Below, piece by piece: positions 10,636-19,644 of a stretch of 64,000 nucleotides of DNA. The notes beneath the pieces were generated by a model. That model saw nothing but the letters and a program-made list of their open reading frames with translations, ran no database searches and was not told where the DNA came from. How positions within the stretch are numbered: position 1 is the first letter of the stretch; each line of letters starts with the position of its first letter. The position numbers were made by a program, and so were the translations under genes. Source of the DNA: Geobacteraceae bacterium (lineage in GTDB: Bacteria; Desulfobacterota; Desulfuromonadia; Geobacterales; Pseudopelobacteraceae); assembly GCA_025355965.1 (NCBI GenBank), contig JANXYR010000043.1, forward strand, positions 62,001 through 126,000, in the 5' to 3' direction.

Positions 10636-12516
10636 ATGAAAGCAGTAATGACAGCGGTTTTAGTACTGATGGCAATTGCTACAGCCTGGGGATTTGATGT
10701 CGGATCGAGCTGTGTGACCTGCCACGGGGACCTGAGCAGAATGAAAGCGCTGGGCGCAGAATCGATGTATCTTGACCCAGCCAAGGTTGACCGTGAGGTT
10801 GCCATGAAGGGCAAGCCCACATGCGTTGACTGTCACCAAGGTAATCCTGCAGCGTTGGAAACAAAGGACGCCCATGCTGGCCTGCAACGCCCTTTTCTTG
10901 TTGGTGCCGGCAAAAAATTAAAGGGGGAAGCTATTTCCCGTGAAGACGCCGGTGCCATGCAGCCGATCGTGCCGAGAGGAAAAGGTATGAGTAGCCTGAT
11001 TCCCAAGGGAGATCCTAAAAAGCTTGAGTCTGCCGGGGTTAACAAGATTGTCGGCATTCAATGGCATGATCGTGATCGTGAAACTATGGCCTATTCCCCC
11101 AAGGTGGCAGAGCAGACCTGTGGGCGCTGCCACAGCAAAGAGGTCAAAGATTACAATACTTCGGCCAAGGGGCTGATGAAAAATCAACGTTCCTACCGCA
11201 GTTGGGCAGAGAAGCTGCCTGGACCACAGAACTGCGGGATGTGGTTTGGACAAAATGAGGAGAGGATCAAAGCAGAAACTTCGGTCCCATATACGAAAGC
11301 TCAAAACAGTGCCTCGGATCGCGCCTGCAATATGTGCCATGCCAGCTGCAACGACTGTCACTATAAACCGGTTGCAAACAAAGGAAGCCATTCTTTTGGA
11401 CAGCCGGACACACCAAGTTGCTATGGGGGCGGTCGCGCCAGCATCTGTCATGCTGGCCCAATGGATCGTCGTCGTGGGGCCGGTTACGTACGGGGAGAAT
11501 ATTCTTTCCCTGCAAATCTGCCAGAGGATACCCATTCCAAATCAGGCCTTCAATGCACAGATTGCCACAAACCGGCCAACCATCAGTTCGGACACCTTTC
11601 TGCCGAAGATGCCCGTAAATCATGTGCCACCTGTCACGGTGACATTGCCAAGGCAGTGGACAGTTCCGCTCATGGCAAGGTTGACTGTACCTCCTGCCAC
11701 GTCACAGTATCTGGCGCCTACCAGTACACCTTCTGGGGCCAGGGAAATACTCTCGGCGTCGAAACACCTTACGGCAAGCATAAAGAATATTACGGCACCC
11801 GTGATCTGCCGACTATCATCAAGAACGCTTCCGGTCGTTGGATTCCGGTTAAGCCCTATCCGATGGCGGTCATGAATCAGACAACAGAAATTGGTCCCTC
11901 GGGTCTCCTGTTCCGATCCATCCCCAAGCGTACCATTCCTGGGAACCCATCAATCGGTGAGCCGCTAACCTTTGAGGTAGCCCGCGCCGTAACCGACGTG
12001 AATGATGCCTTCATCATCGTCGGAACACGTAATGATCTGCCATCCGGCAACAAAGCGATTCTCTGGGTGCAGATGGACAAGCTCAGCCACGCTATCGGCA
12101 AACCGCGCAGTTGCGGCAGTTGCCATGATTCACATGATCAGGTGGGAAAATCAGAGTGGAGTTACTTTGAGGACAAGGATGTGACAAAGCCATTCAAGGG
12201 GAGTTATACCGTGGTGGCCGGCAAAAACGGCATCCACTTCACAAACCTTGTCTGGGAGCAACCTACACTGGCCGCAAAACGCAAACTGGAGGATATCGCC
12301 CCGTTTGCCGTGTTACCTCCAACCGCCTGGGATGTAAAAGGAGTCGATCTCTCCCTCCCTTTCCGTGACAATAAAACCTCTACAGCCCGCAAGGAGCTGG
12401 ATAGCTTTTTGGCCGTACTTGACAAGTGGCCGAAGGATACACGCACAAATGAAATTCGGGTAATTGCCCACCACAACCTGACCATGGCCAAAAAGATGAT
12501 GAGCGGGAAAAAATAG
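10636..12516 (+). CDS. Multiheme c-type cytochrome (nine CXXCH plus one CX8CH)
   Basis: Signal peptide MKAVMTAVLVLMAIATAWG; CVTCH, CVDCH, CGRCH, CNMCH, CNDCH, CTDCH, CATCH, CTSCH, CGSCH, and CYGGGRASICH. Confidence 0.92.
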   Translation: MKAVMTAVLVLMAIATAWGFDVGSSCVTCHGDLSRMKALGAESMYLDPAKVDREVAMKGKPTCVDCHQGNPAALETKDAHAGLQRPFLVGAGKKLKGEAISREDAGAMQPIVPRGKGMSSLIPKGDPKKLESAGVNKIVGIQWHDRDRETMAYSPKVAEQTCGRCHSKEVKDYNTSAKGLMKNQRSYRSWAEKLPGPQNCGMWFGQNEERIKAETSVPYTKAQNSASDRACNMCHASCNDCHYKPVANKGSHSFGQPDTPSCYGGGRASICHAGPMDRRRGAGYVRGEYSFPANLPEDTHSKSGLQCTDCHKPANHQFGHLSAEDARKSCATCHGDIAKAVDSSAHGKVDCTSCHVTVSGAYQYTFWGQGNTLGVETPYGKHKEYYGTRDLPTIIKNASGRWIPVKPYPMAVMNQTTEIGPSGLLFRSIPKRTIPGNPSIGEPLTFEVARAVTDVNDAFIIVGTRNDLPSGNKAILWVQMDKLSHAIGKPRSCGSCHDSHDQVGKSEWSYFEDKDVTKPFKGSYTVVAGKNGIHFTNLVWEQPTLAAKRKLEDIAPFAVLPPTAWDVKGVDLSLPFRDNKTSTARKELDSFLAVLDKWPKDTRTNEIRVIAHHNLTMAKKMMSGKK

Positions 12517-12652: not shown

Positions 12653-13882
12653 GTGTTGAGAATGGGAGATAACTGCATAATCGGTCGGCAACCAATTCTG
12701 GACAGGAATGAGCGTATTTACGGATACGAACTTCTCTTCCGTTCCACTGATGTTAATGCAGCAGACATACAGAATGCAGGCAAAGCTACAGCCAATGTAA
12801 TTATCAATACTATTACATCGTTCGGAATTACAGAGCTCCTTGGTGAACACAAGGGCTTCATAAATGTCGATTTAGATATGCTGATGGACGAAGTCCTGGA
12901 AGTATTACCCTGTGAGAATATCGTCATAGAACTGCTGGAATCTATTGAACCGTCACAAGCCTTGACGGAGCGCTGTCTGACACTCAAGGAAGCCGGATTC
13001 AGTCTGGCCCTGGATGACCACGAATACAGCCCGAACTTTGCCGAACTATATGCCATAGTGGACATTATCAAGATTGACCTTCTCCTGACACCACTTGAAT
13101 CATTGCCTGAAATAATTGATCACCTGCGCCATTTTCCCTGCAAGCTGCTGGCCGAAAAAGTCGAGAACATCGAGCTGTTCACAGCCTGTCACGCTCTCGG
13201 TTTCGACTACTTTCAAGGATATTATTTTGCGCGTCCGGACATACTCAAAAAGAAGAAAATGGACGCCAATACAGCATCTCTTCTCAAGCTGGTACGCCTT
13301 TTGGCAGAAGACGCCGACATCGAGGACATTGAACAGGCATTCCGAATAAGTCCGACTCTGGCATACAAATTATTGATGATTGTCAACTCAGTGGGATTCG
13401 GAAATCGCAGTAAAATCCAGGGAGTGCGCCATGCTATCGCAATGACAGGGCGAGTACAGATCAAACGCTGGTTACAATTGGCACTATTTGCCACAGATGG
13501 CGATGATGCTTTTGAACACCCTCTGCTTGATATGGCCGCGACCAGAGCCGGCCTTATGGAACAGCTGGCTATGGTTCATCCTGAACTGCAGGGCGACCGT
13601 GAATCTTCTGAACGGGCATTTATGACAGGAATCCTCTCGCTGATGGAGAGGATCTATAATATTTCCATCGAAGAGCTCATCGTAAACCTCAACCTCAACG
13701 AAGAAGTTGCCTCCGCACTGATGGACCGCACAGGGCACTATGGCAAACTACTTCAAATAATGGAAGATATTGAAGAGCTTGATATGTGGTCAGCGTCAGT
13801 GGAACTCACGTCAATAGGCATCAGCCCCGACTCCATACTTGATCTTCAAATGCGCGCATTTAACTGGCGTAAAGCCGGATAA
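12653..13882 (+). CDS. YuxH-type EAL/HDOD domain protein
   Basis: IIGRQPILDRNERIYGYELLFRS N-terminal degenerate EAL followed by HDOD. GTG/TTG start or ATG at 12662. Confidence 0.88.
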   Translation: MLRMGDNCIIGRQPILDRNERIYGYELLFRSTDVNAADIQNAGKATANVIINTITSFGITELLGEHKGFINVDLDMLMDEVLEVLPCENIVIELLESIEPSQALTERCLTLKEAGFSLALDDHEYSPNFAELYAIVDIIKIDLLLTPLESLPEIIDHLRHFPCKLLAEKVENIELFTACHALGFDYFQGYYFARPDILKKKKMDANTASLLKLVRLLAEDADIEDIEQAFRISPTLAYKLLMIVNSVGFGNRSKIQGVRHAIAMTGRVQIKRWLQLALFATDGDDAFEHPLLDMAATRAGLMEQLAMVHPELQGDRESSERAFMTGILSLMERIYNISIEELIVNLNLNEEVASALMDRTGHYGKLLQIMEDIEELDMWSASVELTSIGISPDSILDLQMRAFNWRKAG

Positions 13883-13933: not shown

Positions 13934-16003
13934 TTATTCCCTACTCTTTTCAGTTTTTTCCGCACCTTTTTCGACATTTTCAGGCTGTTGTCCACCAGTA
14001 TTAGGCGGTAACATGGTTGGCAATGTCTTTTTGTGATCATCTCCACCATGTTTGGGGCAATATTCACTAGGTTCAGTCCCAACGATGTAGAATTCATCCC
14101 GTTTTACCGGACAGTTCTCTGTTGCCAGATAGCCGGTTGCAGGATCTATGGAAACGGAAACAACCGTATCCGGCATAGGAAAATCTACAACCGGTTTTAC
14201 GGCAACAGTCTTGCGCATGAAACGTTCCCAAATAGGGGCTGCAATAGCCCCACCTGTAAAACTTTTCCCGCCTGGCCGTGGTTTGTCATATCCAACCCAG
14301 ACCCCGATTATGACGTTCGGAGTATAGCCGACAAACCAGGCATCTCGACCATCATCGGTGGTGCCGGTCTTGCCGGCAGATGGGTGCAGCTGGCTAAATT
14401 TTTTTAGACTCTTGGCAGTACCATAAGTCAGTACGTCTTTCAGCATCTGGGTGGTAACGTAGGCAACTGCCGGTGAAACCACCGGCGTAATCACTGGAGG
14501 ATTCTCCGTCCATATACGACGTTTACTGTCATATATACGGATAATGGTTCGGGCTTCAGGCCGCATTCCTCCGTTAGCCAGGGGGATGTAAGCCAGCGCC
14601 AGATCATTCAACGTCACCTCATCCGTCCCCAGAGCCAGGGACAAACCATTCTCCCTCCGTAACGGCAGCCCCATCTTACCTGCAAAATCAGTAAAATACT
14701 GGACTCCTAACGTCTCCAGCAGTTTTACCGAAATAATATTGTTCGAATAGGCCAGGGCCTGTCTGAGGGAAAGATTTCCATATAGCTCCCGACCATAGTT
14801 TAGCGGCTTCCAGATTTCACCATTTCCTCGATTGTAGGTTGCCGGCGTATCGTCCCAGATGCTGCCGGCCGTAATCCCCTTTTCCACGGCTGCAGCATAG
14901 ATGATCGGTTTTATGGCCGAGCCTGGCTGACGCTTGGCAGAGTAAGCACGATTATAGCCGCCAGGGATAACGTCAACGCCACCAACCGCCGCCAGAACAT
15001 CACCCGTATTGGTGTCCAAACAGAGAAGAGCACCCTGCAGCTCTGGGGAAACTCGTTTAACCCCTTCGCGCAAAGTCTGCTCTGCTTGTTTTTGCAGCTT
15101 AAGATCCAGGGCAGCAGTCACCTCCAAACCACCTTGTTCAATAACTTCAGCTCCATAGCGTTCGAGCAGCTTACTGCGTATATGGGCCAAATATTGCGGA
15201 GCCTGTCCCGGCTTGACAACAGAGGGCGGATTAGCTCGCAACGTTTTTCTTTGCCGGATAGAGATCATGCCCAGGTCGAGCATACGTTTGAGCACAATAT
15301 CTCGCCGCCCGGTTACTTGGGCAGATTTCCCCAAGGGGTTGTAGCGGGACGGATTTTTTTGCACACCTGCCAGCATGGCACACTCGGCATCAGTCAACTC
15401 CTCCGGACTTTTATCAAAATAGAGCCTGGCCGCCTGGGCTATGCCCCAGGCACCGTTCCCGTAATAAATTTCGTTAAAATACATCTCCAATATTCGCTGT
15501 TTGCTGTATTTATTCTCAAATTCCATAGCCATGCGGGCTTCATCGAATTTTCTCTCTAATGTTTTTGCTCCGGTCAAATACCTGTTCTTGATAAGCTGCT
15601 GGGTTATGGTCGACCCACCTTCGGCCAATCGCCCCTTAACAACATCCTTCACCAGTGCCCTGGCAATCCCGCGCACATCAATACCGCCATGCTGATAAAA
15701 ACGAGCGTCTTCAACAGCCACCACAGCCTTTTGCAAAAACGCGGGGATGCGATCTATGGAGACCCAGTATCGTTTCTCCGGCAGAATTCGGCCGACAAAT
15801 TGTCTCTGATTGTCGAATACCTTGATAGAGGTGTAACCAGATGGAAGTTGGGGATAGGTGGCAAAATTATCCTGGGCAGGCACCGAAGTGGCAATGATCA
15901 AAACAAGCACCGCCACCAGCAAAACAGAATAGAACAATCTACAGCGTAGGGGACATATCGTGTAACTCAAGGTATATACAACTCCTTCATGAAAATTTGG
16001 CAC
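13934..16003 (-). CDS. Penicillin-binding protein 1A (transglycosylase/transpeptidase)
   Basis: VEDARFYQHGGID, GGSTITQQLIKN, KRQPGSAIKPIIY (SxxK), SNNI, GKTGTTDDGRDAWFVGYTP. Confidence 0.95.
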   Translation of the reverse strand: MPNFHEGVVYTLSYTICPLRCRLFYSVLLVAVLVLIIATSVPAQDNFATYPQLPSGYTSIKVFDNQRQFVGRILPEKRYWVSIDRIPAFLQKAVVAVEDARFYQHGGIDVRGIARALVKDVVKGRLAEGGSTITQQLIKNRYLTGAKTLERKFDEARMAMEFENKYSKQRILEMYFNEIYYGNGAWGIAQAARLYFDKSPEELTDAECAMLAGVQKNPSRYNPLGKSAQVTGRRDIVLKRMLDLGMISIRQRKTLRANPPSVVKPGQAPQYLAHIRSKLLERYGAEVIEQGGLEVTAALDLKLQKQAEQTLREGVKRVSPELQGALLCLDTNTGDVLAAVGGVDVIPGGYNRAYSAKRQPGSAIKPIIYAAAVEKGITAGSIWDDTPATYNRGNGEIWKPLNYGRELYGNLSLRQALAYSNNIISVKLLETLGVQYFTDFAGKMGLPLRRENGLSLALGTDEVTLNDLALAYIPLANGGMRPEARTIIRIYDSKRRIWTENPPVITPVVSPAVAYVTTQMLKDVLTYGTAKSLKKFSQLHPSAGKTGTTDDGRDAWFVGYTPNVIIGVWVGYDKPRPGGKSFTGGAIAAPIWERFMRKTVAVKPVVDFPMPDTVVSVSIDPATGYLATENCPVKRDEFYIVGTEPSEYCPKHGGDDHKKTLPTMLPPNTGGQQPENVEKGAEKTEKSRE

Positions 16004-16429: not shown

Positions 16430-16457
16430 TTGACAAGCCTCCCCGTTGGGGTAAGAT
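16430..16457 (+). promoter_or_regulatory. Sigma70-type promoter upstream of the GEMM-Ib riboswitch
   Basis: TTGACA - 16 nt - TAAGAT. Confidence 0.6.
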
Positions 16458-16483
16458 GCCCGCGAACAAAGCATGGTTCTATA

Positions 16484-16575
16484 CATTGGTTAAACGATAA
16501 TACTAAACCATTCGTGAGAATGGGACGGAAAGCCTACAGGGTCTCACAGAGACAGCCGGGTCGCCGAAATATCCA
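16484..16575 (+). ncRNA. GEMM-Ib riboswitch (3',3'-cGAMP type)
   Basis: cgataatactaaaccattcgtgagaatgggacggaaagcctacagggtctcacagagacagccgggtcgccgaaatatc matches the Geobacter GEMM-Ib layout, including AUACUAAACC in place of the c-di-GMP-type GGGCAAACC. Confidence 0.88.
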
Positions 16576-16604
16576 GAAGATATTCGGTGACCCGGCTTTT
16601 TTTG
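16555..16604 (+). terminator. Riboswitch expression-platform terminator
   Basis: GCCGGGTCGCCGAAATATCcagaaGATATTCGGTGACCCGGCTTTTTTT; the 5' arm overlaps the 3' side of the aptamer. Confidence 0.88.
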
Positions 16605-16717: not shown

Positions 16718-18076
16718 TTGAAAGGACCTTATTTACCCATGTGCCGAATCATTGAGCTGTTACCCTTATCCAATACACTTCGTCTTATAGCTCTTTTTGT
16801 CGTTATATTATCTCTTCAGGGATGTACGACAATGACAAGAGCTCATGAGGAAGAGCAGCTTATTCCAAGATATATGGAAGAAAATATCGAACGAAATGAG
16901 TTTTCTGTTGCAAAAGGAGATGATGTCATTGGTCGATTGAGTTTCATTCGTCTTGAGAAGGGAGATACGCTACCGGATATTGCAAGACACTTCAGCTTGG
17001 GACTTAATGGAGTCAGCGCATCTAATCCTGGAGTAGATATATGGGTGCCTAAAGCTGGAGAACGTATCATGTTGCCTCTGAGTTTTATCCTGCCGGACGC
17101 CCCTAGAAAAGGCATTGTGATCAACTTGGCCGCAATGAGGCTTTTTGAATTTAAAGGAAATAGTGAGCCACTGGCAGTGTTGACCTACCCGGTCGGTGTC
17201 GGTACCGAAGAGCGCCCCACGCCCAGAGGTATAATGCGTGTGGAGCGCAAGGTAACCAGGCCGACCTGGCATGTACCGGCCTCAATTGCCAAGGATCATC
17301 TGAAAAAAGGAGATCCTTTGCCCGCTGCAGTTCTGCCGGGACCTCTTAATCCCTTGGGAGAATACGCGCTCTATTTAAGTGCGCCGAGTTACTTGATCCA
17401 TGGCACTAACAAACCGGCCAGCATTGGTCTTAGGGCATCCAATGGATGCATAAGACTCTTTCCGGAAAGCGTGAAAAAGCTCTATGAGAACACTCCGGTT
17501 AAAACCCCTGTAAACATTGTTAACCAGCCATATCTCTTAGGTCTTAGCAATGGAGTGGTTTACATGGAAGTTCATGCGTCCACGGACAACTTGGACGCCG
17601 CTGAGTTTGATAAGGTATATGCAAAATTGAAAGCTATTGAAAAGGAATCAGGACGCATGTTTGACTGGAGTAAAGTTAAGAACGTATTGGCCGAGGCTCG
17701 CGGGATTCCTGTCCCCATATTCGAGATCAGGCAAGGAAGTGGAAAAGAGGTTGCGGAACCCATAGAGGTTAAGCACCCAGGCAAATTATTTGGCAGCCCA
17801 GAAATACCGGAGCTGAAAACAGATGCGTGGTCTGTTTTGGCTGCTGATGTGCGTGACGAGATTGATGCAGTGAGGCTTTCCGCCATTATCAACCACCAGG
17901 GCCCACAAATCCCGGCAAGCGTGATAGCAGAGAACGATAGCTACCGTGTTGTCGCTGGTCCTTTCAATGATATCAGAGAGGCCAAAGATGCAATCAAACG
18001 TTTGAAAATTGATTTGGAACTGGATGGTAAATTGATTGAACCTATCAAGCGAGAGAGAGGAGGTGAAAAACTATGA
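16718..18076 (+). CDS. L,D-transpeptidase (YkuD) lipoprotein with LysM-like and SPOR-like regions
   Basis: YLIHGTNKPASIGLRASNGCIRLFPE (HxGT...SxGCIR); lipobox LSLQGC. TTG start at 16718 has an upstream AGAGAGG; ATG alternative at 16739. Confidence 0.88.
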   Translation: MKGPYLPMCRIIELLPLSNTLRLIALFVVILSLQGCTTMTRAHEEEQLIPRYMEENIERNEFSVAKGDDVIGRLSFIRLEKGDTLPDIARHFSLGLNGVSASNPGVDIWVPKAGERIMLPLSFILPDAPRKGIVINLAAMRLFEFKGNSEPLAVLTYPVGVGTEERPTPRGIMRVERKVTRPTWHVPASIAKDHLKKGDPLPAAVLPGPLNPLGEYALYLSAPSYLIHGTNKPASIGLRASNGCIRLFPESVKKLYENTPVKTPVNIVNQPYLLGLSNGVVYMEVHASTDNLDAAEFDKVYAKLKAIEKESGRMFDWSKVKNVLAEARGIPVPIFEIRQGSGKEVAEPIEVKHPGKLFGSPEIPELKTDAWSVLAADVRDEIDAVRLSAIINHQGPQIPASVIAENDSYRVVAGPFNDIREAKDAIKRLKIDLELDGKLIEPIKRERGGEKL

Positions 18077-18417
18077 AGAAGAATCTTTTAGTGATCTCAA
18101 TGATGCTTGTTCTTGCAACTACTTTGGGTGGTTGTGCAACAACGGGTGACCTTGCGAAAGTTCAGTCGCAGCAAATGGCGACTGGTGCAAAAGCTGATCA
18201 GGCAGCGCAGGATGCGCAGGCTGCCAAGGCGGCAGCTGATGCGGCCACGATAAAGGCAGAGGCTGCCGCAACCCGAGCAGAAAATGCTCTAAAGCTGGCA
18301 GAAGAAAGGTCTAAAATTGCAGATGAAAAGGCAAAGATTGCAGATGAAAAAGCGAAGATCGCAGATGAAAAGGCGCAGAAGGCTGACGAGACTTTCCGCA
18401 AATCAATGAGGAAGTAA
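18073..18417 (+). CDS. Braun-like (Lpp-type) alanine-rich coiled-coil lipoprotein
   Basis: Lipobox TLGGCAT; Ala/Lys/Glu coiled coil with KIADEKA repeats; C-terminus FRKSMRK; ATGA overlap with the upstream L,D-transpeptidase gene. Confidence 0.8.
   Translation: MKKNLLVISMMLVLATTLGGCATTGDLAKVQSQQMATGAKADQAAQDAQAAKAAADAATIKAEAAATRAENALKLAEERSKIADEKAKIADEKAKIADEKAQKADETFRKSMRK
18313..18375 (+). repeat. Three in-frame tandem 21-bp repeats (KIADEKA)
   Basis: aaaattgcagatgaaaaggca / aagattgcagatgaaaaagcg / aagatcgcagatgaaaaggcg. Confidence 0.9.
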
Positions 18418-18498: not shown

Positions 18499-18588
18499 TA
18501 TGCTTCCACCGTTCGATAAATGTCAGGAAGAGGAAGAAGAATGGTTCTGCGATCATCAAACATATTACTAACTAACACGAAGTCGAAT

Positions 18589-19575
18589 ATGGGTAAAAAG
18601 CTACGTATATTGGGTAAACATCTAAGTTTATTATTTGCCTGCATCTTAATGACACCAATGCTGATATGCGGATGCAGCCACTTTAATGGGGGATTTGAGA
18701 CCAAGTCATCCTTTATAGAAGCAAATGATTTTTTCAGCCAGGGAAACTACAAGGCCTCTCTGAGCAAATATCAGCAGATTATTGAAAAATATCCCACGGC
18801 GGGAGAGAGGGCTCTTTTCGAGATGGGTATTATTTATGCGCATCCTGGCAATGGGCAGAAGGATTATCAGAAATCTCTCGAATGTTTTCATAAACTCATA
18901 AAGGATTACCCGGGGAGTGAATATAAGAAGGACAGTGAGTTGATGATATTTAATGTCAATAATGTCATTGTCAAAGATCAGACGATTGCTACGCAGCAGG
19001 CACAGATCGAGGCTCTCCGACAAGATGTTCAACGTAGAGGGAATGAGAATATTACCCTGCAAAAAAAGATTGAAGCGCTTGAACAAGAGGTTAGGAGTAA
19101 AGAGAATGAACATATTAAACTGCAAAAAGAGATTTTTGTAATCCCGAAGGAACCGGCAGACAAGATTCTGATAGAAAAGAAAGAACGACTATTGACCTTG
19201 ATTTCAAAGGGCAAGGTACTCAAAACCTACAAAATAGCCTTGGGTGGGAACCCTAATGGTCCAAAAGAAAGACAAGGTGATAACAAAACCCCGGAGGGAA
19301 CATACGTTATCGATTCAAGAAATAGGGACAGCAATTATCACCAGTCTCTTCATATCTCCTATCCAAACGAGAAAGACAAAAAACGAGCAAAACAACTTGG
19401 TGTTTCTCCGGGCGGAGACATCATGGTCCACGGTCTTAAGAATGGATTTTCGTGGGTTGGTAATCTCCACACAGAGGTTGACTGGACGAAAGGGTGTATT
19501 GCCGTTACCGACGAAGAAATAGAGGAAATTGACAGGTTGGCGCCAAATGGCACGATAGTTGAGATAAGGCCATGA
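18589..19575 (+). CDS. L,D-transpeptidase (YkuD) lipoprotein with N-terminal TPR/coiled-coil region
   Basis: Lipobox MLICGCSH; TPR-like repeats; DIMVHG...VDWTKGCIAVTDEEI active-site motif. Confidence 0.88.
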   Translation: MGKKLRILGKHLSLLFACILMTPMLICGCSHFNGGFETKSSFIEANDFFSQGNYKASLSKYQQIIEKYPTAGERALFEMGIIYAHPGNGQKDYQKSLECFHKLIKDYPGSEYKKDSELMIFNVNNVIVKDQTIATQQAQIEALRQDVQRRGNENITLQKKIEALEQEVRSKENEHIKLQKEIFVIPKEPADKILIEKKERLLTLISKGKVLKTYKIALGGNPNGPKERQGDNKTPEGTYVIDSRNRDSNYHQSLHISYPNEKDKKRAKQLGVSPGGDIMVHGLKNGFSWVGNLHTEVDWTKGCIAVTDEEIEEIDRLAPNGTIVEIRP

Positions 19576-19610: not shown

Positions 19611-19644
19611 CGAGGCCCCTGATTGAATTCAGGGGCCTCGCTAT
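19611..19644. terminator. Bidirectional terminator between convergent genes
   Basis: CGAGGCCCCTgattgaattcAGGGGCCTCG; TTTTC tail on the minus strand. Confidence 0.75.

What the first reader, a model, noticed from the sequence alone, without database searches (positions are those of the whole stretch)
16430..16604. GEMM-Ib (3',3'-cGAMP-type) riboswitch with terminator platform upstream of an L,D-transpeptidase/lipoprotein operon
Seen: a consensus-like promoter, then GATAATACTAAACCATTCGTGAGAATGGGACGGAAAGCC...GACAGCCGGGTCGCCGAAATATC, then a long hairpin plus T7 whose 5' arm overlaps the aptamer 3' side. Established: GEMM-I aptamers bind c-di-GMP; the Geobacter GEMM-Ib variant (A at the position equivalent to Vc2 G20, as in AUACUAAACC) prefers 3',3'-cGAMP and is known upstream of extracellular electron-transfer genes. 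Inference: cGAMP would raise expression of cell-wall L,D-crosslinking or OM-tethering functions, a less expected output.
Basis: partly seen in the sequence, partly recalled or inferred. Interest (0 to 1): 0.75.

Follow-up and report, generated by a model that had tools for sequence, protein, structure and literature searches.

The report
cGAMP riboswitch controlling outer-membrane tethering genes
A genuine RNA switch of the kind Geobacter uses to sense the signal molecule cGAMP sits in front of three cell-envelope genes that probably tie the outer membrane to the cell wall; the same switch-and-operon pair is already published for Geobacter sulfurreducens, so this is a well-conserved new copy rather than a new system.

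Summary
Window 16492-16568 (+) is a GEMM-I aptamer (RF01051, 46.1 bits, gathering cut-off 35). It has A at the Vc2-G20 position (A16502), which marks GEMM-Ib. A conserved promoter precedes it. It is followed by a terminator whose 5' arm uses up P1, part of P3 and the ligand-pairing C, the anatomy of the published cGAMP ON-switch pilM. The operon behind it is a YkuD+SPOR L,D-transpeptidase, an Lpp/OprI-type alanine-zipper lipoprotein ending in Lys, and a second YkuD protein.

The pairing is not accidental: all 59 Geobacterales genomes checked with a near-full-length orthologue carry GEMM-I upstream (40 in tandem), with A at the key position in all but two copies. Thirty-one of 32 homologous operons from other lineages lack it. 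The genome also encodes a Hypr-type GGDEF enzyme (Ser at the signature site) closest to GacA.

In G. sulfurreducens the 'lipoprotein transpeptidase' operon GSU0181-0183, whose GSU0182 is annotated murein lipoprotein, is GEMM-Ib-controlled and falls 16-fold when gacA is deleted (PMC6456294). What remains open is function: whether cGAMP tunes Braun-type tethering. Ligand binding was inferred, not measured.

The parts
16430..16457 (+). sigma-70-type promoter TTGACA-16-TAAGAT
   Evidence: 10 of 12 consensus matches; TTGACA at about -62 from the aptamer conserved in most of 23 aligned orthologous leaders, with a recognisable -10
16492..16568 (+). GEMM-I (c-di-GMP-I) aptamer core of the GEMM-Ib / 3',3'-cGAMP subtype
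   Evidence: RF01051 46.1 bits, gathering 35; covarying P2 in the 18-sequence alignment
16502..16502 (+). A at the position equal to Vc2 G20 (A14 of the crystallised cGAMP riboswitch, the latter equivalence by my own reading): ligand-specificity position
   Evidence: model position 11 in the cmscan alignment; A in the Ldt-linked aptamers except L176 and one copy of L192; G in 13 of 14 top-scoring GEMM-I of the same family
16496..16499 (+). 5' strand of P1 (GAUA), pairs with 16570-16573 (UAUC)
   Evidence: constrained fold; conserved CGATAAT...ATATC in relatives
16555..16603 (+). intrinsic terminator: 5' arm 16555-16573 overlaps P3/P1 and the ligand-pairing C16564; 3' arm 16579-16596; T7 16597-16603
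   Evidence: hairpin -32.3 kcal/mol; leader MFE forms it, excluding P1
16739..18076 (+). lipoprotein L,D-transpeptidase: lipobox LQGC, YkuD domain with HG...SNGCIR, C-terminal SPOR domain
   Evidence: PF03734 2e-22, PF05036 2.1e-8; LdtE-family hit 172 bits, below the equivalog cut-off 480; PDB 9TYW and 4LZH
18073..18417 (+). Lpp/OprI-family alanine-zipper (murein-type) lipoprotein, lipobox LGGC, C-terminal Lys
   Evidence: NF040598 64.7 bits, cut-off 43; PF11839; C-terminal Lys conserved
18520..19575 (+). second YkuD protein, N-terminal lipobox-like Cys and TPR-like region, motif HG...DWTKGCIA
   Evidence: PF03734 2.4e-17; weak LdtF/DpaA/YafK similarity, 44.1 bits against cut-off 365; conserved in operon
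19614..19641 (.). palindromic hairpin between the operon and the convergent OMP gene, probable bidirectional terminator
   Evidence: sequence GAGGCCCCTGA..TCAGGGGCCTC read directly

Best explanation
A 3',3'-cGAMP-responsive GEMM-Ib transcriptional ON-switch. RNA polymerase starts at about 16464 and makes the aptamer first. If cGAMP, made by the genome's GacA-like Hypr GGDEF enzyme, binds at the three-way junction and locks P1 (GAUA/UAUC) and the pairing of C16564 to the ligand, the 5' arm of the terminator is not free and transcription runs on. Without ligand the longer and more stable terminator forms and the transcript ends at the T7 run. The product of read-through is an envelope operon: an L,D-transpeptidase lipoprotein, an alanine-zipper murein lipoprotein with C-terminal Lys, and a second YkuD enzyme. 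It is predicted to attach the outer membrane to peptidoglycan Braun-style when cGAMP is high. Shown here: aptamer, specificity base, terminator overlap, operon content, conservation, presence of a Hypr-type enzyme. Shown by others in G. sulfurreducens: gacA dependence of the corresponding operon. Inferred: ligand binding by this copy, the ON direction here, and the tethering function.
For: RF01051 hit. A16502. Mutually exclusive folds, -32.3 kcal/mol terminator hairpin against about -20 kcal/mol for the P1-formed aptamer. C16564 is paired in the terminator, as PMC9262584 describes for C75 of the pilM cGAMP ON-switch. 59/59 Geobacterales operons have the element. GacA-like REC-GGDEF protein with Ser at the signature site (GHLVGS), best PDB match 6D9M, a fusion construct that I take to be the GmGacA structure of PMC6456294. 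The only other aptamer above the Rfam cut-off in the genome is also A-type and precedes a multihaem cytochrome. GSU0181-0183 down 16-fold in a gacA deletion and listed as GEMM-Ib-controlled; GSU0182 is murein lipoprotein.
Against: No ligand-binding data for this RNA. PMC6456294 reports that the OmcST riboswitch responds to both cGAMP and c-di-GMP, so membership of this group does not guarantee exclusivity. No biochemical evidence that the lipoprotein is attached to peptidoglycan.
Confidence: 0.88

Rival explanations
1. The aptamer is dual-specificity or mainly a c-di-GMP sensor in this organism, so the operon follows c-di-GMP.
For: The genome encodes about 30 GGDEF domains, nearly all of the usual type. 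One G. sulfurreducens GEMM-I (OmcST) answers both ligands.
Against: A at the specificity position with the full GEMM-Ib signature AAUACUAAACC; the GEMM-Ia sequences of the same family read AAUGGCAAAC. The corresponding operon in G. sulfurreducens depends on gacA.
Confidence: 0.09
2. The element is a decayed aptamer and only the constitutive terminator remains.
For: Only two GEMM-I above the Rfam cut-off remain in this genome while most relatives have several, so loss may be going on in this lineage.
Against: All invariant junction positions are intact, P1 complement and P2/P3 pairing kept, R1 score 106 bits, among the best of all copies (this copy was in the training set).
Confidence: 0.03

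Closest known systems
GEMM-Ib / 3',3'-cGAMP riboswitches of Geobacter (Kellenberger 2015, Nelson 2015; cited in PMC6456294)
   Same: aptamer fold, A at Vc2-G20 position, terminator platform, Geobacterales host with Hypr GGDEF
G. sulfurreducens GEMM-Ib operon GSU0181-0183 (lipoprotein transpeptidases, GSU0182 murein lipoprotein; PMC6456294, PMC7962754)
   Same: same kind of switch before transpeptidase-lipoprotein genes, consistent three-gene order; gacA-dependent there
pilM cGAMP ON-switch of G. metallireducens (PMC9262584)
   Same: terminator 5' arm takes up P1 strand and the ligand-pairing C
   Different: controls pilM genes, not an envelope-tethering operon
E. coli Lpp with LdtA/B/C and DpaA (PMC10653827)
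   Same: alanine-zipper lipoprotein with C-terminal Lys next to YkuD enzymes
   Different: in E. coli no cyclic-dinucleotide riboswitch is involved (my knowledge); here the enzymes are in one operon, are themselves lipoprotein-like, and the first has a SPOR domain

Membership tests
GEMM-I (RF01051) | covariance-model match above gathering score | tested here: met
   46.1 vs 35 bits
GEMM-I (RF01051) | conserved P2/P3 and junction with covariation | tested here: met
   98.8% of cells paired, five pairs with double changes, none of 500 shuffles as high in covariation score
GEMM-Ib (cGAMP subtype) | A instead of G at Vc2 position 20 | tested here: met
   A16502 = model position 11
GEMM-Ib (cGAMP subtype) | selective binding of 3',3'-cGAMP | not testable with these tools
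   needs in-line probing or ITC
GEMM-Ib transcriptional ON-switch | terminator mutually exclusive with P1 and the ligand-pairing C | tested here: met
   C16564 pairs G16587 in the terminator
GEMM-Ib transcriptional ON-switch | ligand raises expression | not testable with these tools
   shown for the G. sulfurreducens operon by gacA deletion RNA-seq (PMC6456294), not for this copy
Hypr GGDEF (GacA) | Ser at the signature position that is Asp in canonical GGDEF | tested here: met
   GHLVGSRVL in the 454-aa REC-GGDEF protein of L025; best PDB match 6D9M
Hypr GGDEF (GacA) | cGAMP synthesis | not testable with these tools
   enzyme assay needed
Lpp/OprI alanine-zipper lipoprotein | family model, lipobox and C-terminal Lys | tested here: met
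   NF040598 64.7 vs cut-off 43; LGGC; ends KSMRK
Lpp/OprI alanine-zipper lipoprotein | covalent attachment to peptidoglycan | not testable with these tools
   needs sacculus analysis
YkuD L,D-transpeptidase | YkuD domain with catalytic HG...S[HN]GC[IV]R | tested here: met
   PF03734 2e-22; HGTNKPASIGLRASNGCIR
LdtE (NF047955 equivalog) | score above curated cut-off | tested here: not met
   172 vs 480 bits
DpaA/YafK amidase (gene 3) | score above curated cut-off | tested here: not met
   44.1 vs 365 bits; only a distant resemblance

The most novel reading that the evidence does not exclude
In Geobacterales cGAMP acts, through this riboswitch, as a dial for outer-membrane-to-peptidoglycan tethering: gene 1 attaches the murein lipoprotein and gene 3, a DpaA/YafK-like YkuD protein, edits or removes the links, so that the envelope is remodelled together with the outer-surface cytochromes when the cell reduces solid iron. 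Homologous operons elsewhere exist without the switch, so control by cGAMP would have been added in this order.
Probability: 0.3. Interest if true: 0.6.

Novelty: new member of a known kind. Interest (0 to 1): 0.32.

Why it matters
It adds an order-wide conservation result to a published but uncharacterised target: all 59 Geobacterales genomes examined that carry this operon keep the riboswitch, so envelope tethering looks like a core output of cGAMP signalling and not a side effect of the cytochrome regulon. That makes a simple question testable in laboratory G. sulfurreducens: does deleting the lipoprotein operon impair iron-oxide reduction in the way that deleting gacA does?

Tried and rejected
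A third weak GEMM-like match in the own genome (C78:32502-32575, R1 32.9 bits) was rejected: no Rfam match even at E = 1. A strict regex for Hypr GGDEF domains missed most domains and was replaced by an alignment. Motif-based detection of the orthologous transpeptidases lost most loci and was replaced by tblastn. The two founding papers (PNAS 2015) are not held, so their target lists could not be read; the eLife 2019 paper was used instead. A search for a solved relative of the lipoprotein found none. A tally of GacA presence against riboswitch presence across the order was considered and not run.

Full report
CHECK OF THE OBSERVATION. Rfam's c-di-GMP-I model (RF01051, the GEMM-I family) matches 16492-16568 on the + strand with 46.1 bits against a gathering score of 35, and it is the only riboswitch in the 64-kb window. 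Model position 11, which is the Vc2 G20 position (the unpaired base just 5' of the P2 closing pairs; this equivalence is my reading of the model), is A16502. Upstream lies TTGACA-16-TAAGAT (16430-16457), conserved at the same spacing before most of 23 orthologous aptamers. Downstream is a 19-pair hairpin (16554/5-16573 with 16579-16596/7) followed by seven T.

FOLDING. The isolated terminator is worth -32.3 kcal/mol. The aptamer with P1 enforced (GAUA 16496-16499 with UAUC 16570-16573) is worth about -20 kcal/mol on the shortened transcript, and the two cannot coexist. The natural leader folds far below its shuffles (z = -7.1). In the terminator C16564 pairs with G16587. C16564 corresponds, by position in GCCGAA, to the C that pairs with the ligand (C75 in PMC6274999 and PMC9262584). 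PMC9262584 describes exactly this sequestration for the pilM cGAMP ON-switch, so the direction is most probably ON. These energies ignore pseudoknots, tertiary contacts and ligand.

THE OPERON. The first gene most likely starts at ATG 16739 (lipobox LQGC, conserved mostly as L-x-G-C in orthologues). It carries a YkuD domain with the catalytic motif HGTN...SNGCIR and a C-terminal SPOR domain; it is related to LdtE-type enzymes but below the equivalog cut-off. The second gene (18073-18417, overlapping the first by 4 nt) is an Lpp/OprI-family alanine-zipper lipoprotein above NCBIfam's cut-off, ending in KSMRK. The third (18520-19575) is another YkuD protein with a TPR-like N-terminal part, distantly like DpaA/YafK (44 bits against a cut-off of 365). 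A palindrome at 19614-19641 probably ends the unit. In E. coli LdtA-C attach Lpp to peptidoglycan through its C-terminal Lys and DpaA removes it (PMC10653827). By analogy the operon looks like an outer-membrane tether with its own enzymes; this is inference.

CONSERVATION. In the order to which the genome belongs, 141 genomes were searched. I call it Geobacterales from the titles of the nearest named records and the riboswitch content; the genome itself is unnamed. All 59 loci examined (58 relatives plus the window) with an orthologue of the first gene carry a GEMM-I aptamer 115-515 nt upstream of the start; 40 have two in tandem. The specificity base is A in all copies except two (the one copy found in L176, whose upstream DNA is short, and the proximal copy of L192). 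Among high-scoring GEMM-I elements of the same family that are not selected by this operon, 13 of 14 have G there (this sample is biased toward high scores of the Rfam model), so the A is a property of these elements and not of the clade. The three-gene operon is nearly always complete, and the lipoprotein ends in Lys in 56 of 58 cases; the two exceptions are one truncated contig and one apparently broken frame. Homologous operons also occur in records titled Nitrospirae, Syntrophaceae, Desulfobacterales and others. Of 32 non-matching loci with at least 450 nt upstream none has a full GEMM-Ib by motif, and the covariance model finds only one degenerate match (L135, 46 bits). Rfam finds no GEMM in twelve Nitrospirae- or Nitrospira-type loci. 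Titles are those of metagenome-assembled genomes and may contain binning errors.

THE SIGNAL. The genome has 32 GGDEF matches. One, a 454-aa REC-GGDEF protein beside a histidyl-tRNA-synthetase-like gene, has Ser at the position that is Asp in canonical enzymes (GHLVGSRVL). PMC6456294 gives this Ser as a signature of Hypr GGDEFs. Its closest PDB chain is 6D9M, a lysozyme fusion of a response-receiver diguanylate cyclase, which I take to be the GmGacA structure described in that paper. The only other GEMM-I above the Rfam cut-off in the genome is also A-type and precedes a 728-aa multihaem cytochrome, the classical kind of target.

WHAT IS ALREADY KNOWN. PMC6456294 (eLife 2019) reports for G. 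[quoted passage not shown] GSU0182 is annotated murein lipoprotein in two other papers; in one of them it is listed as down together with pgcA and GSU1945. The gene order and content agree with the window. I could not compare sequences with the named strain directly.

VERDICT. A new copy of a known kind: a cGAMP (GEMM-Ib) ON-switch before a Braun-lipoprotein-type tethering operon. The added value here is the order-wide conservation, the absence of the switch from most homologous operons elsewhere, and the conserved C-terminal Lys, which together point to envelope tethering as a core cGAMP output. Ligand binding and tethering remain to be shown.

Noticed in passing
L192 (same operon as L145, record titled Geobacter sp. 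GAC1), upstream of the transpeptidase gene: Tandem aptamers in which the distal one has A and the proximal one G at the specificity position (TACT and TGCT): a possible two-signal (cGAMP plus c-di-GMP) leader. L176 has a single G-type copy next to a contig end.
   Followed up: partly
L105, L106, L110-L114, L116, L119-L121, L123, L124: Operons 72-82% identical in the first gene in records titled Nitrospirae or similar, with no GEMM riboswitch: suggests transfer of the operon between phyla and separate gain or loss of the switch.
   Followed up: partly
L135:4829-4913: Degenerate GEMM-like element: P3 half and terminator intact, 5' half strongly changed; below the Rfam gathering score.
   Followed up: partly
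G000 (whole genome): Only two GEMM-I aptamers above the Rfam cut-off, both GEMM-Ib, while many relatives carry 10-20: a strongly reduced riboswitch regulon.
   Followed up: partly
L025:637-2001 and L030:1435-2547: The GacA-like enzyme has GGDEY in place of GGDEF; a second GGDEF protein (L030) has Thr at the Hypr signature position (GHFAGTKLI).
   Followed up: no
window 13934-16003 (-): Bifunctional penicillin-binding protein (transglycosylase plus transpeptidase) transcribed divergently from the riboswitch operon: a second peptidoglycan gene side by side.
   Followed up: no
window 12653-13882 (+): EAL-HDOD protein, possibly a degenerate cyclic-dinucleotide-related protein, close to the operon.
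   Followed up: no
window 10636-12516 (+): Multihaem cytochrome-like protein with many CxxCH motifs a few kilobases upstream.
   Followed up: no
L098:5922-5998 and L100:9514-9590: A further GEMM-Ib aptamer (GATAAGACTAAACC type) some 3 kb downstream of the operon's first gene in two relatives.
   Followed up: no
L111:53-888: CRISPR array (DR7-type repeats) about 4 kb upstream of the operon in a Nitrospirae-titled contig.
   Followed up: no
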